NCBI RefSeq assembly: GCF_001426345.1 | Contig: NZ_LMEM01000014.1 | Coordinates: 62,001 to 126,000, forward strand | Direction of reading: 5' to 3' | DNA: 64,000 nt | Origin: Devosia sp. Root436 | GTDB taxonomy: Bacteria; Pseudomonadota; Alphaproteobacteria; Rhizobiales; Devosiaceae | In this document: piece by piece, positions 440 through 53,693 of the stretch | How the letters are laid out: each line of letters opens with the position of its first letter | How positions within the stretch are numbered: the first letter of the stretch is position 1 | Notes under the pieces: generated by a model | Database searches by the model: none | Told to the model about the DNA's origin: nothing | The model's input: the letters and a program-made list of their open reading frames with translations, nothing else | Made by a program: the position numbers and the translations under genes

Positions 440-3400
440 ATGACCGATACCGCCACGGGCGCCACCGAAACCGATTATTCGGCTACGCTTTTCCTGCCGG
501 AAACCAATTTCCCCATGCGCGCCGGGCTGCCCGAGCGCGAGCCGGGCTGGCTCAAGCGCTGGGAAGAGATGGATATTTACGCCCTGCAGCGCGAGCAGGC
601 CAAGGACCGGCCGCTCTTCACCCTGCATGATGGCCCGCCCTATGCCAATGGCAACATCCATATCGGACACGCCCTCAATAAGACGCTGAAGGATCTCGTC
701 GCCCGCTCCATGCAGATGCTGGGCTACAACTCGGCCTATGTGCCGGGCTGGGACTGCCACGGCCTGCCCATCGAATGGAAGATCGAGGAACAGTACCGCG
801 CCAAGGGCAAGGACAAGAACGACGTCCCCGTCGTCGAATTCCGCCAGGAATGCCGCACCTTTGCCGAGCAATGGGTCGATATCCAGCGCGAGGAATTCAA
901 ACGCCTCGGCGTGCTGGGCGAGTGGGACAATCCCTACCTCACCATGAGCTTCGACGCCGAAGCCCAGATCGCCCGCGAGCTGATGAAGGTGGCGACGACG
1001 GGTCAGCTCTATCGCGGCTCAAAGCCCGTCATGTGGTCAGTGGTCGAGCGCACGGCGCTGGCCGAGGCCGAGATCGAATATGCGGATTACGAGAGCGACA
1101 CGATCTGGGTGAAGTTTCCTGTATCAAGGATACTCACCGTCGCGTCCGCCGCAAAAGAAGGTGCTGTGCCGAGCGCGGCGGAGCTAGCCATCGAACGGCG
1201 AGAGCACCTCACTGGCGCTAGCGTTGTGATCTGGACCACCACGCCCTGGACGATCCCAGCCAACAGAGCGATCTCCTATTCCTCCAAAATAGCGTACGGC
1301 GTCTATGAAGTGACGAAGGCCCCGGACGGCAACTGGGCCCGCGTCGGCGAAAAGTACATCGTAGCCGACAATCTAGCCGCCGAAGTCTTCGCCAAGGCAA
1401 AGGTTGAGGAGTCGGTACGACTGCAAGGCATTCCTGCTTCCGTCATGGCAGGTCTGTCGTGCCATCACCCCCTTCGCGGTCTGGCCGGCGGATACAATTT
1501 TGACGTCCCCCTCCTCGATGGCGAACACGTCACCGACGACGCCGGCACGGGGTTTGTTCACACCGCTCCGGGCCACGGCCTCGATGACTTCGGGATCTGG
1601 ATGGACTCCGCTCGTCTGCTGAATGAGCGCGGCATCGACACCGCCATCCCCTATGTCGTCGGCGACGACGGTTTCTACACCTCCGAAGCCCCCGGCTTCG
1701 AAGGCGCCCGCGTCATCGACGACAACGGCAAGAAGGGCGATGCCAATAACCGCGTCATCGCTGCCCTCGCCGAGCGCAACGCCATGGTCGCCCGCGGCCG
1801 CGTCAAGCACCAATACCCCCATTCCTGGCGCTCCAAGAAGCCGGTGATCTTCCGCAACACCCCGCAATGGTTCGTCTATATGGACCGGCCCATCGCCTCT
1901 TCCCCTTCTCCCCTTGAGGGAGAAGGTGCCCGAAGGGCGGATGAGGGGTCTCTTCCCGACACCCTCCGCGCCCGCGCCCTTGCCGCCATCGACGCCACCA
2001 AATTCTATCCCGCCGCCGGCCAGAACCGCCTGCGCGCCATGATTGCTGATCGCCCCGATTGGGTGCTCAGCCGCCAGCGCGCCTGGGGCGTGCCGATCAC
2101 GGTCTTCGTCCACAAGGCGACCAACGAAATCCTCAAGGACGACCAGGTCAATCACCGCATCGCCCAGAGCTTCGAGGAAGAAGGTGCCGACGCCTGGTAC
2201 AAGCCCGGCGCTGCCGCCCGCTATCTCGGCGAAACGCGCAGTCCCGATGACTACGAGATGGTCACCGACGTTCTCGACGTGTGGTTCGATAGCGGCACCA
2301 CCCATTCCTGGGTGCTGCGCAACAAGCAGAAATGGCCGCATCTCAAATTCCCGGCCTCGATGTATCTTGAAGGCTCCGACCAGCATCGTGGCTGGTTCCA
2401 TTCCAGCCTGCTTGAATCCTGCGCCACCAATGGCTTCGCCCCCTATGACAGCGTGCTGACGCATGGCTTCACCATGGATGGCGAGGGCCGCAAGATGAGC
2501 AAGTCGCTGGGCAATGTCGTCGCCCCGCAGGAGATCATTCGCCAATACGGCGCCGATATCCTGCGCCTCTGGGTCGCCTCGTCCGACTATTCGGAAGATT
2601 TACGCCTCGGCAAGGAGATCATCCAGACCACGGTCGACAGCTACCGCAAGCTGCGCAACACGCTGCGCTGGCTCTTGGGCAATATCGCCCATTACCAGCC
2701 GGGTGACGAAGTCCCCTTCGCCGACATGCCCGAGCTTGAACAGTTGATCCTGCACCGCCTGGCCCAGCTCGATGAGCAGGTGCGTGGCGCCTACAAGGAA
2801 TACGACTACCGCAAGGTCGTGACCCTGCTGACCAACTTCATGAATATCGAGCTCTCGGCCTTCTATTTCGATATCCGTAAGGATGCGCTCTATTGCGACC
2901 CGATCTCCTCGGTCCGCCGCAAGGCCGCGCTCACGGTGCTGCATCACCTGTTCGATTGCCTCACCGCCTGGCTCGCGCCCATCTTGGTCTTCACCATGGA
3001 AGAGGTCTGGCTGGAGCGTCATCCCGAGGCCGGTTCATCGGTCCACTTGCGGCTCTTCCCAGAAGTGCCGCGCGACTGGCTCAATGATGATCTCGCCAGC
3101 AAATGGACGCTGATCCGCGCCGTGCGCCGCGTCGTCACCGGGGCGCTCGAAATCGAGCGTCGCGAAAAGCGTATCGGTTCCTCGCTTGAGGCGGCGCCGA
3201 AAGTGTTCATCACCGATGAGCGCTATCTGACGGCTCTGGCGGGCGAAGACCTGGCCGAGATCGCCATCACTTCGGCTATCGAGATCGGCAATGCCGACGC
3301 ACCGTCCGAGGCCTTCACGCTCGACGATGTCCCCGGCGTCGCCGTGGTTCCGGCCCTCGCCCAGGGCACCCGCTGCGCCCGCTCGTGGAAAATCCTCCCC

Positions 3401-3484
3401 GAGGTCGGCAGCGACGCGGACTATCCCGACGTCTCCCTGCGCGACGCGCAAGCCCTGCGCGAACGCGCGGCGGCGGGGCTGTAA
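440..3484 (+). CDS. ileS: Isoleucine--tRNA ligase
   Basis: Cytoplasmic class I aminoacyl-tRNA synthetase that charges tRNA-Ile with isoleucine. The 1014-residue product has the HIGH signature at residues 74-77, the editing-domain region in the middle, the KMSKS loop at 685-689, and an anticodon-binding C-terminal region. The C-terminal zinc ribbon looks degenerate: a CARSW motif remains but no second cysteine pair is seen. The start is the ATG at 440, which gives the usual N-terminus; the frame is open further upstream but that part has no family resemblance. Residues about 487-507 ([17 protein letters not shown] and flanks) are the translation of a palindromic repeat inserted in frame, between the TPQWF segment and the [13 protein letters not shown] segment. 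Confidence 0.97.
1898..1957 (+). repeat. Palindromic repeat (family A) in frame within ileS
   Basis: The hairpin CCTTCTCCCC-TTGA-GGGAGAAGG at 1904-1926 is followed by the smaller hairpin GCCC-GAA-GGGC at 1928-1938 and ATGAGGGG. The same unit occurs inside cobN near 15380 and between genes near 3610, 36555 and 45548. Here it is read in frame as part of IleS. Confidence 0.85.
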
Positions 3485-3499
3485 TGATAGGGCTAACAC

Positions 3500-3658
3500 C
3501 CTCTTCCCCTCGCCCCTTGAGGCAGAGGGATAGGAAATCCGCGTTCAGCGGATTTTCGAGGGTGAGGGGTGCTGCGCTCTCCCATGCTTGGATGCTGGTG
3601 GAACCAACCCCTCATCCGCCCTTCGGGCACCTTCTCCCTCAAGGGGAGAAGGGAGGGG
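3500..3658. repeat. Composite palindromic repeat (family A) between ileS and lspA
   Basis: The block opens with CCCTCTTCCCCTCGCCCCTTG and closes with a reverse-orientation family A unit (CCCCTCATCCGCCCTTCGGGC then CACCTTCTCCCTCAAGG). A short dyad, AAATCCGC-GTTCA-GCGGATTT, lies in the middle at 3536-3556. It fills nearly all of the 184-base gap between ileS and lspA and may act as a transcript-stabilising or attenuating structure (inference). Confidence 0.75.
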
Positions 3659-3668
3659 TGGATTCTGT

Positions 3669-4232
3669 ATGAACCTCCGCGCACTCGCCACCCCCTCAAC
3701 CTACATTTCCCTCACCACCGCCATCCTCGCCTTCGGCCTCGATCGCGCCCACAAGGCGTTCCAGGTCTCGGCCGATTGCGTTGCCGCCGGCGCGGCCCCC
3801 TGCGTCGAAGTCTTCACCAGCTATGTCCCGTTCTCCATGACCGGCTGGCGCGGCGGCGAGATTGTCCGCGTCACCGATTTCTTCGACTATGTCCTGGTCT
3901 GGAATACCGGCATTTCCTATGGCCTGTTCGATGGCCTGCCAGTCTGGGCCCTCGGCGTGGTCATGCTGGTCGCCATCGTCGCCCTCTCCATCTGGTGGTT
4001 GCGGGCCGATTCCGCGCTGATCCGCCTCGGCCTCGCCTTCTGCATCGGCGGCGCCCTCTCCAATGCCATCGACAGGCTGATCTACGGCGCCGTGGCCGAT
4101 TTCTTCCACCTCCACTGGGGCAACTGGTCGTTCTACATCTTCAACCTTGCCGACGTGGCCATAACTGTCGGCGTCATCCTGCTGATCGCCGATCTCATCG
4201 GCCTGGGCCGGCCACGCAAGTCGGCCGCCTGA
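3669..4232 (+). CDS. lspA: Lipoprotein signal peptidase (signal peptidase II)
   Basis: Inner-membrane aspartic protease that removes the signal peptide of diacylglyceryl-modified prolipoproteins. The 187-residue product has four hydrophobic segments and both family signatures: S-N-A-I-D-R with catalytic Asp135, and F-N-L-A-D with catalytic Asp162. The ATG at 3669 gives a normal N-terminus. The frame is open upstream to 3588, but that extension is translated repeat sequence. Adjacency to ileS is a widely conserved arrangement. Confidence 0.95.
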   Translation: MNLRALATPSTYISLTTAILAFGLDRAHKAFQVSADCVAAGAAPCVEVFTSYVPFSMTGWRGGEIVRVTDFFDYVLVWNTGISYGLFDGLPVWALGVVMLVAIVALSIWWLRADSALIRLGLAFCIGGALSNAIDRLIYGAVADFFHLHWGNWSFYIFNLADVAITVGVILLIADLIGLGRPRKSAA

Positions 4233-50242: not shown

Positions 50243-51856
50243 TCAAAAGAGGCTTTCCTGAGTGTCCTTGTCCGATTGTGGGCGTGGCTTCTTCTTTATG
50301 ACCGGACTGCCTGATATCGTCGCCCCAACCTCGCCATCGGCGAATTCGATGGCGATGGGCGCGCCGGGCAACAGCCCCTCGCGTTCATGCACCAGATTGC
50401 CCTCGGCATCCTTGATGACGGCATAGCCCCGCGCCAGCACGCTCTTGTAGCTCAGCGAGTCAAGCAGTTTGCCGGCTTGGGCCAGCGCCACGCCGCGCAG
50501 GCTCAGGCCCTGCAGCATGCTGGCATAAAGCCGTGTCCCCAGCGGCCCCAGCCGTGTCTGCCCATGGCGCAGCTCGGCCCGCAGCGCATTGGCCGAGAGT
50601 TTCGGTCCGGTGGCATCGAGTTGTGCCCGCTTGCGCTCGACCAGGCGGATGGCCGAAGTCCCGAGGCGTTCGGCGCGAGGATCGTAGGTCAGCCGCGAGC
50701 GGTCGACCGTCTTGCGCAAGCCGGCCTCGGCGCGCATCGACAGGTTTTTCAATCGCTCGCCGAATTCCGCCTGCCGTCGTGCCAGCAATTGCGGCCCCAG
50801 TCGCGGCTCGACCCGCGACAGCCGTACGCGATGGTCCTGCACCGAATGGCGCAGCCCGGCAAAGAGGTTGCTGGCGGCATGGTCGAGCCGTTGCCGCTGG
50901 GTCGAAACCAGGTCCGCCGGCCGCGGCAGGCCCGCACTGGCGGCGCGCAGCCGGTCACGGGCGCTGCTGGCAATGCGCCGCGCCCCCTGCCGCTGGCGCG
51001 AGCCCAGGTCGTCGACATAGCCGATCAGCTCCGTCCGTACCGGAACGGCAGCCTCGGCCGCGGCCGTTGGTGTCGGCGCTCGCATATCCGAGGCGTAATC
51101 GACCAGCGTCGTGTCAGTCTCGTGGCCGACGGCGGAGATGATGGGGATGCCGCTGGCGGCAACCGCCCGCACCACGGCTTCCTCGTTGAAGCCCCACAGA
51201 TCCTCGATGGAACCGCCGCCGCGCGCCACGATCAGCAGGTCCGGGCGGGGGATGGGGCCATCCGACGGCAGCGCATTGAAACCCTCGATGGCGTTGACCA
51301 CCTCGGGCGCGCAGGTGTCGCCCTGCACCCGCACCGGCCAGACCAGCACATGGCTGGGAAAGCGGTCGGCAAGACGATGGAGGATGTCCCGGATCACCGC
51401 CCCGGTGGGCGAGGTGATGACGCCGATGACCCTTGGCAGATAGGGCAGGGGCCGCTTGCGCTCGCGGGCGAACAGGCCCTCGGCATGCAGCTTGCGCCGC
51501 CGCTCCTCCAGCAGCGCCATCAGCGCGCCGGCGCCCGCCGGCTCGATATTGTCGATCACAATCTGGTATTTCGAGGAGCGCGGGAAGGTGGTCAGCCGCC
51601 CGGTGGCGATGACTTCAAGACCCTCCTGCGGCTTGAAGGTCAGCCTAGCATAGCTGGTCTTCCACACCACCGCATCGATCGAGGCGTTTTCGTCTTTGAG
51701 CGTGAAATAGGCGTGGCCCGAGGCATGCTGGCCGCGAAAGCCCGAGATTTCGCCGCGCACCCGCACATGGCCGAACTCATCCTCGACCATGCGTTTGACC
51801 GCCTGGGAAATCTCGCTGACGGAAAATTCGGCGGCATTGGTCAGGGCTTCGGCCAT
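50243..51856 (-). CDS. xseA: Exodeoxyribonuclease VII large subunit
   Basis: Large subunit of exonuclease VII, which degrades single-stranded DNA. The 537-residue product has an N-terminal OB-fold (VRGEISGFRGQHASGHAYF near 33), then GVITSPTGAVIRDI near 146, VARGGGSIEDLWGFNEE near 208 and SAVGHETDTTLVDYASD near 240, and a long helical C-terminal region. It heads the xseA-DUF2093-glycosyltransferase run and is divergent from the toxin-antitoxin-like pair. Confidence 0.95.
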   Translation of the reverse strand: MAEALTNAAEFSVSEISQAVKRMVEDEFGHVRVRGEISGFRGQHASGHAYFTLKDENASIDAVVWKTSYARLTFKPQEGLEVIATGRLTTFPRSSKYQIVIDNIEPAGAGALMALLEERRRKLHAEGLFARERKRPLPYLPRVIGVITSPTGAVIRDILHRLADRFPSHVLVWPVRVQGDTCAPEVVNAIEGFNALPSDGPIPRPDLLIVARGGGSIEDLWGFNEEAVVRAVAASGIPIISAVGHETDTTLVDYASDMRAPTPTAAAEAAVPVRTELIGYVDDLGSRQRQGARRIASSARDRLRAASAGLPRPADLVSTQRQRLDHAASNLFAGLRHSVQDHRVRLSRVEPRLGPQLLARRQAEFGERLKNLSMRAEAGLRKTVDRSRLTYDPRAERLGTSAIRLVERKRAQLDATGPKLSANALRAELRHGQTRLGPLGTRLYASMLQGLSLRGVALAQAGKLLDSLSYKSVLARGYAVIKDAEGNLVHEREGLLPGAPIAIEFADGEVGATISGSPVIKKKPRPQSDKDTQESLF

Positions 51857-51906
51857 GCCTTCTGGTGCGACATCGGGCGAGTCAGGTCAAGAGCGGCGTC
51901 GGCAGT

Positions 51907-51935
51907 TTGGTTTTTAGACGGAATTGCCGTATATC
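51907..51935 (+). promoter_or_regulatory. Candidate promoter of the toxin-antitoxin-like pair
   Basis: TTGGTT (51907-51912) and TATATC (51930-51935) with a 17-base spacer lie 18 bases before the ATG at 51954, in the gap to the divergent xseA start. Confidence 0.45.
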
Positions 51936-51953
51936 TTGGCCCGTGAGGTAGAG

Positions 51954-52517
51954 ATGGCATTGCGCGCGTATGTGGAAGAGTTTGACGAGTTGGCGGCAAG
52001 TATGCCGGCGGCGCCAAACGTTGTTGCCGCAAATGACATCGGTGGTGTCCCGTCGCGTGAACTGATCAAGTCGCTCGAAAAAATCGATCGGCTGATGGTT
52101 GAGTGGCGCAACCACACGATCACGACCATCCACAACTTTCGGGCCTCATTGCTGGCGGCGCAGAAGGCCGGGAACGATGAGGCCATCCGATACGTATGCA
52201 ACGATATACTTCCCTTAATTGTCTCCAAGGTTGCGGAAGTCTGCCAGATGGTCGACGAGTGGCAATATCTGTCACCTGAGGCAGAGCTTGCCCTTGCTCG
52301 CGGTGCTGCCCGTTCCAAGGCAGATAGGGGATTCGCCAAGTTTTTCCGGAAGCGACGGTATGCGATCATGTCAACAAACCTGGATCGCGCGCGACGTCTT
52401 CGACACAGCGCGCAGTCCCTGATCTGGGAGTTTGACCCGGAGGCGCGAGAACGCACAGGTACACTTTCGTCGATCGGTGATCTTGAGGATTACTTTAATG
52501 GGCTCGCCGCGGAATAG
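51954..52517 (+). CDS. Unknown helical protein paired with a RelE-like toxin (candidate antitoxin)
   Basis: A 187-residue soluble protein predicted from sequence to be mostly helical (MALRAYVEEFDELAASM, then ELIKSLEKIDRLMVEWR, AQKAGNDEAIRYVCNDILPL, and a basic stretch FRKRRYAIMSTNLDRARRLR near 135). It is unlike the usual short DNA-binding antitoxins. The next gene starts immediately after its stop codon, with no gap. Start at 51954 follows GAGG; the region is AT-richer than xseA. The antitoxin role is inferred from position only. Confidence 0.65.
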   Translation: MALRAYVEEFDELAASMPAAPNVVAANDIGGVPSRELIKSLEKIDRLMVEWRNHTITTIHNFRASLLAAQKAGNDEAIRYVCNDILPLIVSKVAEVCQMVDEWQYLSPEAELALARGAARSKADRGFAKFFRKRRYAIMSTNLDRARRLRHSAQSLIWEFDPEARERTGTLSSIGDLEDYFNGLAAE

Positions 52518-52784
52518 ATGGTCGCCCTGCATCGGACGCGGCGTTTCGACAAACGTGTTGCTGCGCTTGGCTCAGAAGAACGCACCCGTGCGCTCAAATC
52601 GTTGAAGCAGTTCCTTGCCGACCCACGTCATCCATCATTGCACTTCGAAAAGCTTAGCGGCAGTGACTACCGAACAATCCGCGTAGACATGAATTTCCGG
52701 ATCGTAATGTTACAGAATTTCGATGGTAGTTTCGACCTCATAGACGTGGATAGTCACTCCACCATCTACAACAAGTATGGCTAA
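52518..52784 (+). CDS. RelE/ParE-superfamily toxin-like protein
   Basis: An 88-residue protein with the RelE/ParE pattern: a short N-terminal strand (VALHRTRRFDKRVAAL), a helix ALKSLKQFLADP, then HFEKLSGSDYRTIRVDMNFRI and a late DLIDVDSHSTIYN. The DYRTIRVDMNFRIV segment matches the conserved strand with arginines found in RelE-family toxins. It directly follows the candidate antitoxin gene. The likely role is ribosome-dependent mRNA cleavage or a related growth-arrest activity, untested here. Confidence 0.72.
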   Translation: MVALHRTRRFDKRVAALGSEERTRALKSLKQFLADPRHPSLHFEKLSGSDYRTIRVDMNFRIVMLQNFDGSFDLIDVDSHSTIYNKYG

Positions 52785-52805
52785 GGCCCCGAGTCTCGTC
52801 CGTCA

Positions 52806-53693
52806 CTACTCCGCCGCTTCCGCTGTCCGCGGCGCCGGCAGGTTGCCCATCGACTGCACGATGTGGTTCGCCAGCGCATCATAGATGCCGCCATAGGCAT
52901 GGCTGGCGCGCTTCAGCGCGATCTGGGCGTCACCGAGCCGGGGCAGGCCCACCTCGTCATTGACCACCCGCATGCCCGGCTGCAGCGCGCTTTCGGGCAG
53001 GAAGCCGATGGCCAGGTCCGACAGCACGGCGCTGGAAATGGCGGTGGCGTTGGACGAGGTATAGGCCACCCGATAATCCTTGCCGCTGCGCTCCAGCGCT
53101 TCCATCGCGTCCTTGCGCCAGATGCAGTATTGCGGCCCGCAGGCGATGGCGATCGGATCGCTGGCCAGCGCCCGGCCGCCATGGCTGGCCACCCAGAACA
53201 TCTTTTCGGTGCGGAACAGTTCGCCGTAATTCTGCTCGGTGCCCTGGGTGAAGACGATGAGGTCATAGCGCCCCGCCCGCATGCCTTCGAGCAGGTGCTC
53301 GGAGGCCATGCAGGCCACATCGACCGCGATCTTGGGATGGGTGCGCTGGAAGCTGGACAGGATCACCGGCAACAGCCGCACCGCATAATCGTCCGGCACG
53401 CCGAAGCGGATCGAACCGGCCAGGTCGCCATCGGAGAAATGGTCGAGAATCTCGGCATTGGTGCGCAGCATCTTGCGGGCGCGGGAATAAAGCGCCTCGC
53501 CATGCAGGGTGAGTGTCACGCTGCGCCCGTCGCGGGTCAGCAGCGTCTGGCCCAGGCGTTCTTCGAGTCGCTTGATCTGCATCGACACGGCCGATTGGGT
53601 CTTGTTCACCCGGCGCGCCGCCTCGGTGAAACTGCCGCAATCGGCAATGGCGCAGAAGCTCTGGAGCTGGTCGAGATCGAGGGGAGCGGTCAT
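52806..53693 (-). CDS. LysR-type regulator, LsrB/VtlR-like
   Basis: A 295-residue LysR-family protein with the N-terminal winged helix (LDQLQSFCAIADCGSFTEAA, then RVNKTQSAVSMQIKRLEERL) and a C-terminal effector domain with PDDYAVRLLPVILSSFQ. The N-terminus resembles the LsrB/VtlR group of Hyphomicrobiales, known to activate small DUF1127 genes and AbcR-type small RNAs. It is divergent from a DUF1127 gene here, which fits, but the subgroup call is by recall. Confidence 0.82.
   Translation of the reverse strand: MTAPLDLDQLQSFCAIADCGSFTEAARRVNKTQSAVSMQIKRLEERLGQTLLTRDGRSVTLTLHGEALYSRARKMLRTNAEILDHFSDGDLAGSIRFGVPDDYAVRLLPVILSSFQRTHPKIAVDVACMASEHLLEGMRAGRYDLIVFTQGTEQNYGELFRTEKMFWVASHGGRALASDPIAIACGPQYCIWRKDAMEALERSGKDYRVAYTSSNATAISSAVLSDLAIGFLPESALQPGMRVVNDEVGLPRLGDAQIALKRASHAYGGIYDALANHIVQSMGNLPAPRTAEAAE

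What the first reader, a model, noticed from the sequence alone, without database searches (positions are those of the whole stretch)
51954..52784. Candidate toxin-antitoxin pair with an unusual 187-residue partner
The second gene looks like a RelE/ParE-type toxin; the gene before it, ending one base before the toxin start, is not a standard short antitoxin but a helical 187-residue protein of unknown family with a basic patch. The pair has its own promoter-like sequence and an AT-richer composition, which is typical of mobile TA modules. Order antitoxin-toxin also fits.
Basis: partly seen in the sequence, partly recalled or inferred. Interest (0 to 1): 0.75.

Follow-up and report, generated by a model that had tools for sequence, protein, structure and literature searches.

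The report
Toxin with an oversized helical antitoxin
Two touching genes in an alphaproteobacterium look like a mobile toxin-antitoxin pair in which a small RelE/ParE-type toxin is held in check by a helical protein twice its size that belongs to no catalogued family, and the same kind of pair recurs in other bacteria and viral contigs.

Summary
A 187-codon gene (51954-52517) ends at the base before an 88-codon gene (52518-52784). The small protein is a RelE/ParE-superfamily toxin by profile and predicted fold, with invariant Arg61 and His80 as in RNase-type members. The 187-residue protein matches nothing in Pfam, NCBIfam, PHROGs or PADLOC; it is predicted to be a long-helix bundle with a loose C-terminal tail.

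The pair is not a one-off. Diverged copies with the same order and touching or overlapping genes occur elsewhere in the genus, in Methylorubrum, in distant Pseudomonadota (once in tandem) and in two viral contigs. In a 279-genome scan with the partner profile alone, 7 of 8 strong hits sat directly before a ParE-like toxin; at the eighth the toxin frame is broken near a contig end. In 20 of 25 readable genus junctions the site is an empty xseA-lysR gap, so the module is an insertion.

I rate it a new variant of type II toxin-antitoxin modules: known toxin fold, unclassified large antitoxin without a recognisable DNA-binding domain. The insecticidal protein Txp40 ends in a related domain, so the module may be its split counterpart. 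Toxicity, neutralisation and binding are untested.

The parts
51892..52805 (.). Inserted segment that carries the pair; conserved flanks end at 51891 (left, upstream of xseA) and resume at 52806 (right, 3' end of the lysR-type gene)
   Evidence: blastn of the junction against same-genus loci; 20 of 25 readable junctions have under 200 bp between xseA and lysR
51945..51948 (+). Likely ribosome-binding sequence GAGG
   Evidence: read from sequence; inference
51954..52517 (+). 187-residue helical partner, proposed antitoxin
   Evidence: ORF; no family hit; predicted helices 2-15, 34-71, 75-103, 108-118, 122-160, mostly pLDDT 73-92; relatives always before a ParE-like toxin
52278..52424 (+). Basic stretch of the partner, about residues 109-157
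   Evidence: charge profile
52401..52514 (+). C-terminal tail of the partner (residues 150-187), proposed toxin-binding segment, containing FDPEA...LSSIGDLEDYFNGL
   Evidence: only region shared across the two partner groups by profile-profile comparison (hhalign E 2e-4 over the last ~63 residues); residues about 170-188 have pLDDT under 50 in the fusion model
52518..52784 (+). 88-residue RelE/ParE-superfamily toxin
   Evidence: PF24732 and phrog_1213 hits; close relative L018 passes PF24732 and PF05016 cut-offs; fold match to YoeB/YafQ/RelE, Z about 10-11.5
52647..52649 (+). Toxin Glu44 codon, conserved in 9 of 10 long-partner toxins aligned
   Evidence: alignment A20
52698..52700 (+). Toxin Arg61 codon, invariant
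   Evidence: alignments A20, A21
52755..52757 (+). Toxin His80 codon, invariant; aligns with catalytic His84 of HP0894
   Evidence: role of His84 from PMC7584586

Best explanation
It is a mobile type II-like toxin-antitoxin module. The 88-residue protein is a RelE-fold toxin, most likely a ribonuclease that stops translation, because it keeps the Arg and His of RNase-type relatives. The 187-residue protein is the antitoxin: a folded bundle of long helices with a flexible acidic C-terminal tail. I propose that the tail folds over the toxin's active face, as the tails of smaller antitoxins do, and that the bundle holds or dimerises the complex or senses a trigger. The touching stop and start codons would couple translation so that antitoxin is made first. 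Shown: gene order, toxin superfamily, recurrence of the pair, absence of a known antitoxin domain, insertion into a conserved gap. Inferred: toxicity, RNase activity, neutralisation, tail binding, coupling.
For: Toxin: phrog_1213 E 5e-5; relative L018 above Pfam cut-offs for PF24732 (33.2 vs 24.4) and ParE_toxin PF05016 (28.4 vs 23); profile hits HP0894, RelE3, RelE, RelK, HigB, YoeB in the PDB (E 5e-5 to 0.09); model part 189-273 matches YoeB 2a6r Z 11.5, rmsd 2.2, 78 residues, and YafQ 4mmj Z 11.4; L41, R61, H80 invariant in 18 toxins. Pair: same order and junction in L002, L018, L052, L004/L053, L024, L041/L043/L036, L068 (two), L069, L070, L071. Co-occurrence: partner profile gives 6 places in 8 related genomes, each directly before a toxin start; partner scan of 279 genomes gives 8 strong places, 7 followed by an intact toxin. 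Long-partner toxins cluster on the toxin tree: 5 changes against 12.8 when shuffled, 0 of 500. Acidic partner and basic toxin in 13 of 14 pairs (partner pI 4.5-6.0, toxin 9.2-10.9). Mobility: empty site in relatives, and G028 carries its relative pair at another locus while its own xseA-lysR junction is empty.
Against: No experiment. No DNA-binding domain was recognised in the partner and no operator is shared between copies, so autoregulation is unsupported. The C-terminal similarity is modest: the window tail ranks about 16th among 1047 control tails against the g2 profile, L052 worse, and L059 is not supported. Neither fold gives a reliable complex: pTM 0.55 and 0.43, and coordinates could not be inspected. 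The module is rare in its genus (3 of 75 genomes with any profile hit, one of them with a short antitoxin).
Confidence: 0.75

Rival explanations
1. The toxin acts as a ParE-type gyrase poison and not as a ribonuclease; the rest of the toxin-antitoxin reading stands.
For: Pfam names are ParE-like (PF24732, PF05016), and the fold is shared by gyrase poisons and RNases (PMC10440598). ParE structures 5czf and 3kxe also match the model.
Against: R61 and H80 are invariant; H80 aligns with HP0894 His84, a catalytic residue (PMC7584586). The best structure and sequence matches are RNases (HP0894, RelE, YafQ, YoeB, HigB).
Confidence: 0.15
2. The helical partner is not a direct neutraliser. The two genes are a split form of a two-domain effector like Txp40, where the helical part has a delivery or host-side role.
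For: Txp40 (PDB 7xbj) is the top Foldseek hit of the read-through fusion (E 4.5e-4), and its C-terminus matches the toxin profile by sequence (E 0.0015 and 5e-4).
Against: The whole-chain superposition is poor (TM 0.25, rmsd 22), and the partner profile does not list Txp40 among its PDB hits. No secretion signal or secretion genes were seen beside the pair. The modules sit in small mobile insertions and a provirus like ordinary TA pairs.
Confidence: 0.07
3. It is an anti-phage defence module: the helical bundle senses infection and then releases the toxin, so the large antitoxin is a sensor and not just a clamp.
For: The bundle is larger and more variable than binding needs (identity 12-28% to the window protein while toxins keep 30-57%). 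Copies occur in a provirus and a viral contig. The same chromosomal gap holds other accessory cargo, including a HigBA-like pair.
Against: No PADLOC hit and no defence genes were identified next to the pair. Rapid divergence also fits toxin specificity or drift.
Confidence: 0.2
4. The pair is a decayed or inert remnant, or the two genes are adjacent by chance.
For: Rare in the genus and low G+C foreign DNA.
Against: Both frames are intact, the toxin's conserved residues are kept, and the arrangement recurs at unrelated loci with diverged sequences.
Confidence: 0.05

Closest known systems
DinJ-YafQ and HP0894-HP0895 (RelE/YafQ-type mRNA interferase modules)
   Same: Toxin size, fold (YafQ Z 11.4) and profile match (HP0894 E 5e-5); C-terminal catalytic His aligns.
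   Different: Their antitoxins are short proteins; here the partner is about 155-190 residues, mostly long helices, with no known DNA-binding domain. The HP0894 Glu58 is not clearly conserved here.
ParDE / PaaA2-ParE2
   Same: ParE-superfamily toxin following its antitoxin; PaaA is also an antitoxin family found specifically with ParE (PMC4803016).
   Different: ParD has a ribbon-helix-helix domain and PaaA2 is small, with a third gene PaaR; neither feature was found here.
Standard relatives of this toxin paired with ~66-aa, Phd-like or MazE/AbrB-like antitoxins
   Same: Related toxins, same order, overlapping genes.
   Different: Antitoxins are 66-115 residues and unrelated by sequence to the long helical partner.
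MqsRA and HicAB
   Same: Antitoxin larger than toxin (PMC4803016).
   Different: MqsA and HicB are other folds and the toxin gene comes first.
Txp40, 40-kDa insecticidal toxin (PDB 7xbj)
   Same: C-terminal domain related by sequence to these toxins (E 5e-4); top Foldseek match of the fusion.
   Different: Single chain; relation of its remaining part to the partner is not established.

Membership tests
RelE/ParE superfamily toxin | RelE fold | tested here: met
   Model residues 189-273, mostly pLDDT 85-97, match YoeB, YafQ and RelE at Z 10-11.5
RelE/ParE superfamily toxin | Profile match above a curated cut-off | tested here: inconclusive
   Window protein 19.5 bits against a cut-off of 24.4; its 50% identical relative L018 passes two ParE models
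RelE/ParE superfamily toxin | RNase-type active-site residues | tested here: met
   R61 and H80 invariant in 18 sequences; H80 aligned with HP0894 His84. The catalytic Glu is less certain (E44, 9 of 10)
Type II toxin-antitoxin module | Two adjacent co-directional genes, antitoxin usually first, coupled junction | tested here: met
   Stop and start touch in the window; overlaps of 1 or 4 bases in most relatives
Type II toxin-antitoxin module | Conserved pairing across genomes and patchy, mobile distribution | tested here: met
Type II toxin-antitoxin module | Antitoxin neutralises toxin by protein binding | not testable with these tools
   Needs expression and binding assays; models do not resolve the complex
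Type II toxin-antitoxin module | Antitoxin has a DNA-binding domain and autoregulates | tested here: inconclusive
   No DNA-binding family hit in any of 10 partners; no shared operator. Not all type II antitoxins bind DNA
ParDE | Ribbon-helix-helix ParD antitoxin | tested here: not met
   No RHH family match; partner is a long-helix bundle
PaaR-PaaA-ParE | Small PaaA antitoxin and third regulator gene | tested here: not met
   187-aa partner, two genes only between xseA and lysR
Txp40 | Single chain of about 370 residues ending in a RelE-like domain | tested here: not met
   Two separate genes here; only the toxin domain is related by sequence
Known antitoxin families (Phd/YefM, MazE/AbrB, HigA, RelB/DinJ, Panacea and others in the libraries) | Profile match of the partner | tested here: not met
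   No significant match in Pfam, NCBIfam, PADLOC or PHROGs

The most novel reading that the evidence does not exclude
The partner founds a new class of large, folded helical antitoxins that neutralise RelE-fold RNases without binding DNA and may act as trigger sensors; an insecticidal toxin (Txp40) arose by fusing such a pair into one chain.
Probability: 0.2. Interest if true: 0.8.

Novelty: new variant of a known kind. Interest (0 to 1): 0.55.

Why it matters
Type II antitoxins are usually small and classified by their DNA-binding domain. This partner is about twice the size of its toxin, carries no recognisable DNA-binding domain, and is invisible to four family libraries, so annotation pipelines will miss both the antitoxin and many of its fast-diverging relatives. 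If confirmed it adds an antitoxin family, raises the question of how such modules are regulated, and gives a concrete hypothesis for how a secreted insecticidal toxin could derive from a chromosomal toxin-antitoxin pair.

Tried and rejected
Promoter and terminator consensus scan: nothing above chance. Shared operator: inverted repeats upstream of eight copies are not common to them; only the window and L052 share a GCCG(T/A)ATAT(C/-)TTGGC-like word. Nearest homologues on plasmids or in phage records: partner and segment DNA give none in plasmids; toxin hits are mostly N-terminal domains of longer frames annotated 3'-5' exonuclease, or pairs with other antitoxins. Partner from single-sequence scans of genome and viral contigs: none. 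Partner fold against the PDB: best Z about 13 to long-helix bundles (Sso2, STAT, MukF), no better than expected for any helical bundle, so not used. L059 (Nitratiruptor phage, 129-aa partner) and L004 as members of the partner family: L059 not supported and L004 borderline by the tail test. Literature: no held paper describes such an antitoxin in the searches made; the Txp40 structure paper is not held.

Full report
What is there. The window holds two co-directional genes between xseA (50243-51856, minus) and a lysR-type gene (52806-53693, minus). The first runs 51954-52517 (187 aa); its TAG is followed at once by the ATG of the second, 52518-52784 (88 aa), in the same frame. The pair is richer in A+T than its surroundings.

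The small protein. It matches PF24732 ParE_like weakly and PHROG 1213, 'RelE-like toxin'. Its relative in Methylorubrum rhodinum (L018, 50% identical) passes the Pfam cut-offs of both PF24732 and PF05016 ParE_toxin. A profile of 18 relatives finds HP0894, RelE3, RelE, RelK, HigB and YoeB among solved structures. In the AlphaFold model the toxin part is mostly confident (pLDDT about 85-97) and matches YoeB, YafQ and RelE (Z 10-11.5). Leu41, Arg61 and His80 are invariant, and His80 falls on the catalytic His84 of HP0894 (role stated in PMC7584586). I therefore favour an RNase over a gyrase poison; this is inference.

The large protein. No hit in Pfam, NCBIfam, PADLOC or PHROGs, nor for relatives. 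The model shows long helices to residue 160 and a low-confidence tail of about 25 residues. The helical part resembles many helical bundles no better than chance would allow, so no fold assignment is made.

Recurrence. A same-genus genome (G028) has a 155-aa partner (25% identical) and a 57% identical toxin at another locus. Further pairs: L018 (Methylorubrum), L052 (viral contig), L004/L053 (a genome with two near-identical copies, and a provirus contig), L024, L041/L043/L036. A phylum scan adds L068 (two pairs in tandem), L069, L070 and L071. Other relatives of the toxin instead follow standard short antitoxins (~66 aa, Phd-like, MazE/AbrB-like). On the toxin tree the long-partner state needs 5 changes against a shuffled mean of 12.8 (0 of 500), with few columns and several unresolved forks.

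Are the partners one family? Profile-profile comparison of {window, L002, L018, L052} with {L068a, L068b, L069, L070, L071} gives probability 46%, E 2e-4, confined to the last 63 residues and aligned end to end. In a held-out test, the first group's tail profile ranks four of the five second-group tails in the top two of 1047 controls; the reverse is strong for L018 and weaker for the window (rank about 16) and L052. L024 and L041/L043 are probable, L004 borderline, L059 unsupported. The bundle itself diverges too far to align with confidence, so the shared tail is the best evidence of common origin and the reason I place toxin binding there.

Co-occurrence. In eight related genomes the partner profile finds six places, each abutting a toxin start; the seventh toxin there has a short antitoxin. 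In 279 genomes of the phylum the partner profile finds eight strong places; seven are followed by an intact toxin, the eighth (G860) by a toxin frame broken within about 160 bases of a contig end, where a sequencing error cannot be excluded. The ninth, weak hit lies in a 693-aa frame and is probably a coiled-coil chance match. The two scans overlap in genomes, so they are not independent samples.

Mobility. xseA is followed by the lysR gene in 25 of 30 readable same-genus loci (the window's own included); 20 have under 200 bp between them. Homology to the window stops at 51891 and resumes at 52806, so about 0.9 kb was inserted. G028 has an empty junction but carries its own pair elsewhere. Other species use the same gap for a HigBA-like pair (L137) or an acetyltransferase-like gene (L112).

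Txp40. The fusion obtained by reading the TAG as a residue has PDB 7xbj, Txp40, as its best Foldseek match (E 4.5e-4, but TM 0.25 and rmsd 22). Independently, toxin profiles match only the C-terminal stretch of Txp40 (residues 322-365, E 0.0015 and 5e-4). So the toxin domains are related; whether the partner and the rest of Txp40 are related is open. From memory, and not checked here because the paper is not held, the Txp40 structure report likened its C-terminal domain to type II toxins.

Mechanism and limits. Most likely the large protein is an antitoxin that binds the toxin through its acidic C-terminal tail, with translation coupled by the touching codons. Toxicity, binding, RNase activity and regulation are not shown.

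Verdict. A real, recurrent and mobile module, best filed as a new variant of a type II toxin-antitoxin system with an unclassified large helical antitoxin.

Noticed in passing
L137 (gap 3115-3826) and L112 (gap 3112-3622): The xseA-lysR gap is a cargo site in this genus: one species holds a HigB/HigA-like pair there and another an acetyltransferase-like gene.
   Followed up: partly
Loci L023-L042 of the class scan; plasmid hits H3-H7: ParE-like domains sit in frames of about 650-860 residues; those on Thermus and Meiothermus plasmids are annotated 3'-5' exonuclease, which suggests a toxin-like domain fused to a helicase or nuclease.
   Followed up: no
L068:33-1761: Two complete partner-toxin pairs in tandem, toxins about 60% identical.
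   Followed up: partly
L004, L053, L060, L065: One genome (G178) has two near-identical copies of a long-partner pair; the same sequence lies in a provirus contig of IMG/VR.
   Followed up: partly
L018:3474-4267: Partner gene is AT-rich (G+C 0.44) while the toxin gene is 0.61, in a 0.69 locus; the two genes may have different histories.
   Followed up: no
window 51926-51940 and L052:1920-1933: Similar near-palindromic words (GCCGTATATCTTGGC, GCCGATATATTGGC) upstream of both pairs; a possible operator or chance.
   Followed up: partly
PDB 7xbj residues 322-365: The C-terminus of the insecticidal protein Txp40 matches the toxin profile by sequence.
   Followed up: partly
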